Positions 45,477-48,165 of a DNA stretch of 48,165 nt are shown piece after piece. Below the pieces are notes generated by a model that was not told where the DNA came from, made no database searches, and was given only the letters and a program-made list of their open reading frames with translations. Each line of letters begins with the position of its first letter. Positions within the stretch are counted from its first letter, which is position 1. Source of the DNA: Elusimicrobia bacterium GWC2_61_19 (GTDB taxonomy: Bacteria; Elusimicrobiota; Elusimicrobia; Elusimicrobiales; UBA9959); the NCBI GenBank assembly GCA_001799795.1, contig MGUD01000022.1:24986-73150 (forward strand). Reading direction: 5' to 3'. The translations under genes were made by a program, and so were the position numbers.

Positions 45477-45896
45477 ATGTCCAAGTCCGTGCTGATAATA
45501 GATGACGACGAGGATCTGTCTGTCCTGCTGATGGAATTCCTTCAATCGAAGGGTTTTACCGTCTCCAGGGCTTTCGACGGCGCTTCCGGGCTGGAGAAGG
45601 CCAGGGCGCAGCTGCCCGACCTGATCACCATGGATTTCAATATGCCCGGCGCCAACGGCGTCGAGACCTACAACAAACTGCGCAGCCACCCCGAGACCGC
45701 GGTCATCCCCGTCATCTTCTTTTCCTCCACCATGATGGGCCTTATCAAGCGCATGGTGCTGGAGAACACGCGCATAAAATTCCTGAAAAAAGGCTGCCCC
45801 ACCAAAGAGCTGGAGGCCTGCGTCAACGAAATGATGGCCCTCCCCAAACTCGCCCCTCCGCCCCCGCCCCCCGTAAAACCCGACGGCCTCCGCTAA
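45477..45896 (+). CDS. Response regulator receiver protein
   Basis: SVLIIDDDEDLSVLL; LITMDFNMPGANGVE; K near FLKKG; Pro-rich tail. Confidence 0.93.
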   Translation: MSKSVLIIDDDEDLSVLLMEFLQSKGFTVSRAFDGASGLEKARAQLPDLITMDFNMPGANGVETYNKLRSHPETAVIPVIFFSSTMMGLIKRMVLENTRIKFLKKGCPTKELEACVNEMMALPKLAPPPPPPVKPDGLR

Positions 45897-45899
45897 CTT

Positions 45900-46181
45900 A
45901 GATAAAACTCCGCAAGGTGCGGAGTTGGGTGTGTCGCCAATGCAAGTTCGGGGTCCTGCCGCCCGAACCGACTTTCCGGTCCAGCCGCTCCACCCATCCC
46001 CTGCTAGGCTGGCGAGATGTAAACCTGCCGTTCACCTTACGCGGCTGGCCCAGAAAGCCGGTCCGTGCGTCACCCCTCCAGCGTTCCGCCCGGCCAGATA
46101 AAGGTTTCTCTACTTGGCTTCATAGACTTAGTATTTGAACCTTCGAATCCTCTGGTTAATTTCGGCTCGTTTTGGGGTATT
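45900..46181 (-). ncRNA. Candidate structured non-coding RNA of unassigned family
   Basis: Minus-strand 20-position helix (46060-46041 with 45988-45969), further hairpins, intrinsic terminator 45926-45906, TATAAT on minus at 46193-46188; no convincing ORF. Confidence 0.5.
45902..45926 (-). terminator. Intrinsic terminator reading on minus strand
   Basis: AACTCCGCA-CCT-TGCGGAGTT followed by TTAT on minus strand; plus strand lacks a T tail. Confidence 0.8.
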
Positions 46182-46189
46182 TAGGTGAT
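46174..46189 (+). repeat. Left copy of direct repeat flanking R-M-like pair
   Basis: ggggtatttaggtgat versus ggggtattcaggtgat at 48060, 15/16 identical. Confidence 0.65.
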
Positions 46190-46375
46190 TATATTTTCAC
46201 TGAATATTTCATTAACAAGCGCCGCTATATTTGGTAAATTATACTCGGAGTATTTAAATAATTTCTTATTATGATGGGTTGGTGAATAAGAAAATCTTAT
46301 ATTCCCCCATATGTTATCACGACACTACGCTGTCGGGATAATCTGCTAGACTATTTAAAGAGTTTTGGGGGATAT

Positions 46376-47392
46376 ATGTACTTTTTTACGGAAAAAACAG
46401 AGTCGTATGTCAGGGAGAAACTCGTTCAGGAGAGTCTATTTCAAATCGGTTACAATAAAACTATGAGCACACCCGTAATAACTTTAGGACCCAAAGTGAT
46501 GCCTGCTATGGCCAAAAAGAGTGGGGGATTGGCTAAAAACAAATTAAACAGAATCTATGAAAAAGATTGCATTGCTTTTATGGATGAACTGTCGGAAAAA
46601 GTGCTTGACGTTGTAGTGACCTCCCCTCCCTATAATATACACAAAAACTATTCAAAGTATAAGGACAATAAAGAGAGTGGTGAGTATGTTGAGTGGATGG
46701 GGATGGTTGCTGAAAAAAGCAAGAGGGTTTTAAAAGATAATGGCTCTTTTTTTCTTAATATAGTTGGGGCTCCTAGTGAGCCGTGGGTCCCTTTTGATGT
46801 AGCGAAGGAGTTTTCTAAACATTTTACCCTTCAGAACACCATCCACTGGGTTAAAGCTATTGCTCTCCCAAAGGACAGCACGGAGACAAAATCTAACACA
46901 AATGGTTTAAATGGGGATATCTCATTGGGGCATTTTAAACCTATAAACACCCCTAAATATTTAAACCAATGCCATGAATATATTTTTCACTTTACGAAAA
47001 ATGGGACTGTGGCGTTGGATAAGCTGGCAATAGGTGTTCCATATCAACATGAAAGCAACATGACTCGGTGGAAAACAAAGTCGAATAAAAGAGATCGGGG
47101 TAATATCTGGTTTATTCGATACGAAAACAAACAGGGTGCTTTTGCCCCCATTGTTCATCCTGCGACGTTCCCGGAAAAACTGCCTTACCTGTGTGTAAAA
47201 CTTCATGGGGCCGGCCCCGAAACAGTAGTCTACGATCCCTTCATGGGGATCGGAACTACCGCTCTTGCCTGCCTTCGACTTGGGGTGTCTTTTTTGGGTA
47301 CGGAGATAGACCCCAGATATATAAAAGAAGCCGAGAAGGCGATCTTGAAACGAAAAACAGACCTGGAAACGTCAAAATCAAATGGACACTAA
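46376..47392 (+). CDS. Site-specific DNA methyltransferase (beta-type motif order; N4-cytosine or N6-adenine)
   Basis: VVTSPPYNIHKNYSKY (motif IV) precedes VVYDPFMGIGTTALACLRLGVSFLGTEIDPRYIKEA (motif I); exact start uncertain. Confidence 0.93.
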   Translation: MYFFTEKTESYVREKLVQESLFQIGYNKTMSTPVITLGPKVMPAMAKKSGGLAKNKLNRIYEKDCIAFMDELSEKVLDVVVTSPPYNIHKNYSKYKDNKESGEYVEWMGMVAEKSKRVLKDNGSFFLNIVGAPSEPWVPFDVAKEFSKHFTLQNTIHWVKAIALPKDSTETKSNTNGLNGDISLGHFKPINTPKYLNQCHEYIFHFTKNGTVALDKLAIGVPYQHESNMTRWKTKSNKRDRGNIWFIRYENKQGAFAPIVHPATFPEKLPYLCVKLHGAGPETVVYDPFMGIGTTALACLRLGVSFLGTEIDPRYIKEAEKAILKRKTDLETSKSNGH

Positions 47393-48005
47393 CTCAAACA
47401 AAGAAATATCTTTCAAGGAAATATCTCAGTTGCCCGGAAAGCTTGGAAAGCGCAGCTTTTCTGAGATTTTAGTGGCAGTGTGTGATCACAGTATTTTGCC
47501 AATGCAGTTGTCTGATCGGGATGACAGCAAATTGCTGGATACCATCAAAAAAGCGATGGATAACTTCATGAAGGCTAGTCGAAAATCGGAAACGAGATAT
47601 AAGGCGAGCCGGGCGAATGAGGCGGGTAGTAAGATGGAAAGCGCCATCGTTGAGGAAATGAAGAAAACCTCGTTAAACCCAGAAAAACTTGGGAGTAGTG
47701 GCTATCCTGATTTGTGTATAAACCTAGATGGAAAAACATCATATATTGAATTAAAAACAAGTGCACAAAAAAATAAAAAAGGGACTCACCATCGGTTATT
47801 CTATTTTACATCCGGGAAGAAAATAAAAATGGACGCACACCATTTACTTCTGCAGGTTCAGATTATCGAGGAGGTGGACAAGTATTGGAAGGTCGCCTCT
47901 TGGGAACTGCGCGATTTGTATAATTTAAAAGTCGGTTTAAAAACAGAATGGAATGCAAATCAAGGGGACTTTGACGACGCAGGGCTTCTTGTAAAAGGAG
48001 AATAG
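47382..48005 (+). CDS. Putative type II restriction endonuclease, PD-(D/E)XK fold
   Basis: GSSGYPDLCINLDGKTSYIELKTS = PD-x12-ELK; overlaps methyltransferase stop by 11 nt. Confidence 0.75.
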   Translation: MDTNSNKEISFKEISQLPGKLGKRSFSEILVAVCDHSILPMQLSDRDDSKLLDTIKKAMDNFMKASRKSETRYKASRANEAGSKMESAIVEEMKKTSLNPEKLGSSGYPDLCINLDGKTSYIELKTSAQKNKKGTHHRLFYFTSGKKIKMDAHHLLLQVQIIEEVDKYWKVASWELRDLYNLKVGLKTEWNANQGDFDDAGLLVKGE

Positions 48006-48075: not shown

Positions 48076-48165
48076 GTTGTTCACTAGTTGACTGATTTAA
48101 TCCTTTTAAGCTTCCAATTTGCCGAAACTTAGGAAACATCAATAGCGTTAACGAAACCGGAGGGG

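What the first reader, a model, noticed from the sequence alone, without database searches (positions are those of the whole stretch)
45900..46181. Unassigned, strongly structured minus-strand RNA candidate at the island boundary
Seen directly: on the minus strand 5'-CGGCUUUCUGGGCCAGCCGC (46060-46041) pairs with GCGGCUGGACCGGAAAGUCG (45988-45969) over 20 positions with one G.A mismatch. A 7-bp hairpin GTTCGGG/CCCGAAC with a 9-nt loop sits at 45968-45946. A 6-bp hairpin GTGAAC-GGCAG-GTTTAC sits at 46035-46019. A possible closing helix GGGTG/CACCC plus CGC/GCG joins 46075-46067 with 45937-45927. The segment ends in a 9-bp intrinsic terminator. The segment is GC-rich like the host, unlike the AT-rich DNA to its right, so it is probably chromosomal. 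I looked for RNase P, SRP, tmRNA and 6S hallmarks and found none that fit. The RNA identity is inference; the helices are in the sequence.
Basis: partly seen in the sequence, partly recalled or inferred. Interest (0 to 1): 0.78.

Follow-up and report, generated by a model that had tools for sequence, protein, structure and literature searches.

The report
Structured dispersed repeat beside restriction genes
The folded segment is real, but it is not a one-of-a-kind RNA gene: it is one copy of a family of dispersed folded repeats in Elusimicrobiota bacteria (I found no earlier description), and here, with a second folded repeat on the other side, it brackets a DNA restriction-modification module that close relatives lack.

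Summary
The minus-strand structure exists (fold z = -3.8) and the strand is right, but the interpretation changes. Rfam has no match. The element is a dispersed, multi-copy intergenic repeat (about 165 nt) found almost only in Elusimicrobiota, plus a few Omnitrophota copies; one genome holds 28 stem-confirmed superfamily copies in 985 kb. The long stem is kept by compensatory change (25 of 41 pairs change on both sides; 0 of 500 shuffles reach this) while loop blocks are almost invariant. The inner stem tolerates G.U over A.C (52:11), so one strand is what folds. The family is modular: shared arms carry different cores. Copies pair as inverted doublets (7 of 7 close pairs in G157 in -/+ order). 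In relative G014 the flanking genes adjoin; here the site holds [this element, -], a DNA methyltransferase and restriction enzyme, then [second element, +]. Inconsistent neighbours argue against a riboswitch, patchy distribution against a housekeeping RNA. Best reading: a REPIN/BOX-like non-autonomous mobile element of a new family. The mobilising enzyme is unknown, RNA versus ssDNA is undecided, and RAYT linkage was not found.

The parts
45927..46103 (-). Structured repeat element (family 1): both arms plus core; homology shared with other copies is about 45930-46091, and the outer 5' stem (46080-46103) is degenerate in this copy
46065..46079 (-). 5' arm GGAGGGGTGACGCAC: near-invariant block; GGGGU (46076-46072) pairs with ACCCC (45954-45950)
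   Evidence: alignment A1; helix 100% paired in 15 homologues
46041..46065 (-). 5' strand of the long covarying stem
46030..46038 (-). AAGGTGAAC, invariant loop segment of the expanded tip
46011..46029 (-). Small variable hairpin GGCAGG...CTCGCC inside the tip (this, not GTGAAC/GTTTAC, is the better conserved pairing)
45991..46008 (-). CCTAGCAGGGGATGGGTG, invariant 18-nt tip block; exact scan of the GTDB species-representative collection gave 44 loci, one of them probably chance
45964..45988 (-). 3' strand of the long covarying stem
45930..45960 (-). 3' arm, ..GCAGGACCCCGAACTTGCATTGGCGACAC (arm type A), shared with a second core family (L310)
45906..45926 (-). Inverted repeat AACTCCGCA/TGCGGAGTT; not shared by other copies, not scored as a terminator
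46316..46357 (+). Genus-wide ~38-bp repeat, palindrome plus -10-like box, upstream of the methylase gene; possible promoter/operator of the cargo
46376..47392 (+). Cargo: type II DNA methyltransferase (N6_N4_Mtase, PF01555)
47382..48005 (+). Cargo: probable type II restriction enzyme (PADLOC REase_II 1.2e-17; weak RE_TdeIII)
48145..48165 (+). First bases of the second structured element (5' outer stem and arm, AGCGTTAACGAAACCGGAGG..); the rest lies beyond the window in L331:2640-2790, interrupted by an assembly gap

Best explanation
The segment is one copy of a non-autonomous, REPIN/BOX-like mobile repeat of Elusimicrobiota. Shown: (1) a dispersed, intergenic, multi-copy element; (2) one strand folds into arms + long stem + tip, and this fold is conserved by covariation with nearly invariant loops; (3) modular build, with shared arms carrying different cores; (4) copies occur as inverted doublets with 5' ends facing inward; (5) this site is empty in relatives; (6) here the space between two oppositely oriented elements holds a restriction-modification module. 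Inferred: the folded single strand (ssDNA or RNA) is the substrate of a trans-acting mobility enzyme that recognises the conserved arm and tip loops; the doublet is the mobile unit; accessory genes can ride between its halves. The enzyme was not identified.
For: Multi-copy in genus and family: G014 8 matches, G025 5, G016 4; 26 of 342 phylum genomes by covariance model, at most 8 candidates scored per genome; 39 matches in one groundwater Elusimicrobia MAG, many copies at contig ends; 28 stem-confirmed superfamily copies in 985 kb of G157. Structure: 25/41 pairs with two-sided change, 73 compensatory cells against 21 expected, 0/500 shuffles; inner-stem G.U 52 against A.C 11 over 59 distinct copies, p about 2e-7, while the outer stem shows no asymmetry, 19:15. 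Doublets: G157 pairs within 600 bp are 7/7 in -/+ order, 9/11 within 1.5 kb; the five partners found near family-1 copies are all on the 5' side and opposite strand; a two-element unit of about 380 bp recurs at four loci. Empty site: in G014 the two flanking genes are adjacent (about 110 bp); in the window genome they are separated by element + R-M genes + element; other relatives also lack the element after the response regulator. Intergenic position with inconsistent neighbours.
Against: No mobility enzyme was identified. RAYT-type Y1 transposases are not flanked by copies and were not found in G016, G025 or G158, which carry copies. No autonomous version turned up in the 985 kb of G157 and 160 kb of G014 checked. 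No target-site duplication could be defined. Element ends differ between genomes: GGGTG..CGAAAATTTC inverted ends in G061/G171, copy-specific outer stems elsewhere. The doublet statistics come mainly from one genome; a 400-kb contig of G019 gave only one arm cluster and could not test them. G.U counts are not fully independent because copies are related.
Confidence: 0.62

Rival explanations
1. The repeats are functional cis-acting RNA parts (large terminators, mRNA-stabilising or protein-binding 3' elements) that happen to be abundant; selection on host RNA function, not mobility, keeps the fold.
For: Strand-specific G.U tolerance and nearly invariant loops; several G157 type-A copies end in a GC stem followed by a U-run, e.g. 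GCCGCTATTTTTCC in L164.
Against: Neighbour orientation is mixed: upstream gene same/anti 16/12, downstream gene same/anti 10/18; no terminator is scored at the window copy; variable copy number between related species and empty orthologous sites.
Confidence: 0.2
2. A trans-acting small RNA or ribozyme gene family, transcribed from its own promoter on the minus strand, that has multiplied by duplication.
For: Covariation with highly conserved loops and strand asymmetry; an expanded tip domain with extra paired arms in L023/L024.
Against: No sigma-70-like promoter on the minus strand by a simple scan; the tip with the most conserved loops is dispensable, since short versions lack it and near core-less versions exist; absent from most genomes of the phylum.
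Confidence: 0.1
3. A classical terminal-inverted-repeat DNA-transposon MITE whose internal structure is incidental.
For: In G061/G171 about 40 sites carry the same ~18-bp end GGGTGNNNCGAAAATTTC with different interiors.
Against: Some copies there lack the left end; in other genomes the outer stem is copy-specific, not a conserved terminal repeat; the inner covariation and G.U bias are not explained by decay of an incidental palindrome.
Confidence: 0.08

Closest known systems
REP/REPIN elements with TnpA-REP/RAYT (PMC3116915, PMC8266576, PMC2817692)
   Same: High-copy, extragenic, hairpin-forming, inverted doublets predicted to fold in ssDNA or mRNA, non-autonomous
   Different: Units are about 100-250 nt with arms, a long covarying stem and conserved tip loops instead of 20-40-bp palindromes (PMC3733652); no RAYT next to copies; one doublet here encloses a 2-kb R-M cargo
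Pneumococcal BOX/RUP/SPRITE repeats (PMC3049150)
   Same: Small interspersed repeats with extensive secondary structure, considered parasitic
   Different: Different phylum; no sequence comparison was made; here covarying stems with nearly invariant tip loops and interchangeable cores
MITEs (general knowledge)
   Same: Short, non-coding, dispersed, inverted-repeat ends in G061/G171
   Different: Outer ends not conserved in most genomes; fold and loops of one strand conserved; no target-site duplication established

Membership tests
Any Rfam 15 family | Covariance-model match at the gathering score | tested here: not met
   0 matches in the whole window; best local sub-threshold match is a chance-like mir-3160 hairpin, 24.5 of 80 bits; only a tRNA in 11 loci that hold copies
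REP/REPIN-RAYT | High copy number in intergenic DNA | tested here: met
   28 stem-confirmed superfamily copies in 985 kb of G157; neighbours inconsistent
REP/REPIN-RAYT | Inverted doublets | tested here: met
   7/7 pairs within 600 bp are -/+ in G157; 5/5 partners of family-1 copies
REP/REPIN-RAYT | 20-40-bp palindromic unit | tested here: not met
   Unit about 100-250 nt, arms + stem + tip
REP/REPIN-RAYT | Copies flanking a Y1 (RAYT) transposase gene | tested here: not met
   PF01797 hits in 6 of 9 genomes; no copies in the 14 loci around them
MITE | Terminal inverted repeats | tested here: inconclusive
   Clear in G061/G171, copy-specific stems elsewhere
MITE | Target-site duplication | not tested
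   Ends could not be fixed precisely; many G171 copies are cut by contig ends
MITE | Partner element with the same ends and a transposase | tested here: inconclusive
   No convincing long arm-to-arm interval in the contigs checked; other contigs and genomes not searched
BOX-like repeat (by analogy) | Modular build around interchangeable inner parts | tested here: met
   Type A arms on two different cores (L310); tip present, absent or expanded; similarity of principle only, no homology test
Riboswitch / cis-regulatory leader | Consistent downstream gene on the same strand | tested here: not met
   Neighbours vary in identity and orientation
Housekeeping RNA (RNase P, SRP, tmRNA, 6S) | Present in nearly all related genomes | tested here: not met
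   26 of 342 phylum genomes; no tmRNA/tRNA in window; no Rfam match
Intrinsic terminator (window copy) | GC-rich stem directly followed by a U-run | tested here: not met
   0 sites in 45800-46400

The most novel reading that the evidence does not exclude
Pairs of oppositely oriented structured elements form the ends of composite mobile units in Elusimicrobiota that carry accessory genes (here a type II restriction-modification system; elsewhere pairs enclose a PIN-domain gene, a methyltransferase and an AT-rich gene of unknown family), moved by an unidentified enzyme that reads the folded RNA or ssDNA rather than a conventional terminal repeat.
Probability: 0.2. Interest if true: 0.85.

Novelty: new variant of a known kind. 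Interest (0 to 1): 0.58.

Why it matters
It points to a large, apparently undescribed class of structured dispersed repeats in a poorly studied phylum, with unusually strong strand-specific conservation, a REPIN-like doublet layout, and a case of a doublet bracketing a defence module. If the doublets move cargo, they give a route by which these bacteria gain restriction-modification and other accessory genes; the conserved loops make the search for the recognising protein concrete.

Tried and rejected
Rfam at gathering and permissive thresholds: nothing credible. Viral contigs: no exact match to the 18-nt tip block. RAYT (PF01797) as the mobiliser: present in some genomes, never next to copies. 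Search for an autonomous element with the same arms at long spacing: none convincing. Trial alignment A2 contained a wrong L031 interval and was discarded. Column-wise G.U/A.C counting on A3 gave 36:30, no bias; I attribute this to misaligned diverged stems in A3 and replaced it by arm-against-arm alignment of each copy, but the discrepancy should be kept in mind. An empty site for the G157 copy in L164 was not resolved: the syntenic G160 region carries another repeat there. For L013 the upstream gene's orthologues lack the element, but the downstream gene differs too. A 400-kb contig of G019 was not informative for doublets. Considered and set aside: integron attC (invariant loops, no array), introns (copies intergenic, no interrupted gene seen), IS110 bridge RNA and HEARO/omega RNA (no Rfam match, no adjacent enzyme; compared from memory only). 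The Lentisphaerae match L038 is probably chance: it has the 18-mer but no arms.

Full report
WHAT WAS CLAIMED. A strongly structured, unassigned minus-strand RNA at 45900-46181 beside an AT-rich island.

CHECK. The stem is there and the strand folds well beyond chance (-114.8 kcal/mol, z = -3.8, 0/200 shuffles). Rfam 15 has no match in the window; sub-threshold matches at the site are chance-like. The conserved closing helix is instead GGGGU (46076-46072) with ACCCC (45954-45950), 100% paired in 15 homologues. The terminator hairpin is not shared by other copies and is not scored as a terminator.

IT IS A DISPERSED REPEAT. A DNA search of the window's own genome finds one full copy and a fragment. 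In relatives the 150-bp core is multi-copy: eight matches in G014, five in G025, four in G016, single matches in others. An exact scan for the invariant 18-mer CCTAGCAGGGGATGGGTG over the GTDB species-representative collection gives 44 loci, almost all Elusimicrobia, with a few Omnitrophota MAGs and one probable chance match. One groundwater MAG (JACQJM = G061 = G171) has 39 matches, many at contig ends, as expected of recent repeats. A covariance model built from 19 copies finds the element in 26 of 342 phylum genomes, eight genera, with at most eight candidates scored per genome, so counts are lower bounds. In G157 the loose stem scan gives 54 raw hits over 985 kb, against 36 in shuffled DNA; only the 28 with strong stems (duplex below -24 kcal/mol), which I also inspected in the printed list, are used.

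STRUCTURE. Copies share an arm (GGAGGGGUGRC ... GRCAGGACCCCGAAC), a long stem of variable sequence, and a tip. In the window type the tip carries AAGGUGAAC, a small hairpin, and CCUAGCAGGGGAUGGGUG, invariant over the alignment. Of 41 pairs, 25 show changes on both sides; 73 compensatory cells against 21 in shuffles; no shuffle of 500 reaches any of the five measures; sliding the structure by one column drops pairing from 88% to about 50%. The stems of L025 and L026 are nearly wholly rewritten and still complementary. Aligning the two arms of every copy with a strand-neutral score, mismatches in the inner stem are G.U 52 against A.C 11 in 59 distinct copies (p about 2e-7; relatedness makes this rough), while the outer stem shows 19 against 15. 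So one strand, the minus strand here, appears to be what folds under selection. This does not separate RNA from ssDNA, since G.T is also better than A.C in ssDNA (general knowledge). A column-wise count on the coarse alignment A3 had shown no bias (36:30), which I attribute to misaligned stems.

MODULARITY. L023 and L024 carry the same ~104-nt structured insert in the tip; L027 has only a short GAAA hairpin. G157, G158, G160 and G027 carry a short version without the expanded tip, and near core-less arms exist. In the window's genus a second core (GGCCGGAACGCAAAACACGTTC...GGTTTTGCTAACCCGGCC) is more abundant: 13 matches in the window's incomplete genome, at least 41 in G014; L310 shows that core on the same type A arms. 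G061/G171 copies have GGGTGNNNCGAAAATTTC inverted ends shared by different interiors.

DOUBLETS AND CARGO. In G157, neighbouring copies within 600 bp are 7/7 in -/+ order (5' ends facing inward) and 9/11 within 1.5 kb; of neighbours more than 5 kb apart only 1 of 21 is -/+. Near family-1 copies in the window's genus the five partners found are all upstream on the opposite strand, and a ~380-bp two-element unit recurs at four loci. At the window locus, the response-regulator gene (45477-45896) and the next chromosomal gene are adjacent in G014 (about 110 bp between them). In the window genome they are separated by this element (-), a type II methyltransferase (46376-47392) and a probable restriction enzyme (47382-48005), and a second element (+) whose first bases are the last of the window and which continues after an assembly gap. 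The island boundary in the finding is therefore the inside edge of a bracketing pair. Other relatives also lack the element after the response regulator. In G157, pairs about 1 kb apart enclose a PIN-domain gene, a methyltransferase and a GC-0.40 gene of unknown family, but also apparently ordinary genes (rhomboid-like, metF-like; read from sequence, not searched), so cargo carriage is suggestive only.

MECHANISM. Best supported: a non-autonomous mobile repeat of REPIN/BOX type, in which the folded strand is read by an enzyme acting in trans. Shown: repetition, folding, strand bias, doublets, empty site. Inferred: mobility by such an enzyme, and cargo transport. The known REP enzyme is a Y1 transposase (PMC8266576; REPINs PMC3116915); it is not adjacent to copies here and was not found in three carrier genomes, so membership in REP-RAYT is not claimed. 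BOX repeats (PMC3049150) are the nearest analogue in being structured, interspersed and probably parasitic. Inconsistent neighbours argue against a riboswitch; patchy distribution argues against a housekeeping RNA.

LIMITS. Draft MAGs, capped searches, no expression data, no target-site duplication, doublet statistics mainly from one genome. Literature searches in the held library found no description of these repeats in Elusimicrobia/Elusimicrobiota; most subscription papers and preprints were not searchable.

Noticed in passing
window 46316-46357; G000:C29 (L330:661-14430): A ~38-bp repeat, palindrome CCCGACACTACGCTGTCGGG followed by a -10-like box, lies upstream of the methylase gene and at many other places in genus genomes, including five in 14 kb of G000:C29, several just before an ORF start; probably a shared promoter/operator of accessory genes.
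   Followed up: partly
L164:531-727 (G157:C17) and many places in G158/G160: A second, apparently unrelated ~187-nt structured dispersed repeat with ends TTAACCTGAA...TTCAGGTTAA, dozens of matches, stems that change in a complementary way, no Rfam match.
   Followed up: partly
L291-L310 (genus genomes), G000 and G014: A very abundant second core family (GGCCGGAACGCAAAAC...GTTTTGCTAACCCGGCC) with apparent covariation of GNAAAAC with GTTTTNC, up to 97% identical across species of the genus.
   Followed up: partly
L330 (G000:C29:4500-20000): The contig with five copies of the 38-bp promoter-like repeat may be an accessory-gene cluster; its genes were not annotated.
   Followed up: no
window 47382-48005: The restriction enzyme is only distantly related to known families (PADLOC REase_II 1.2e-17; Pfam RE_TdeIII below its cut-off).
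   Followed up: no
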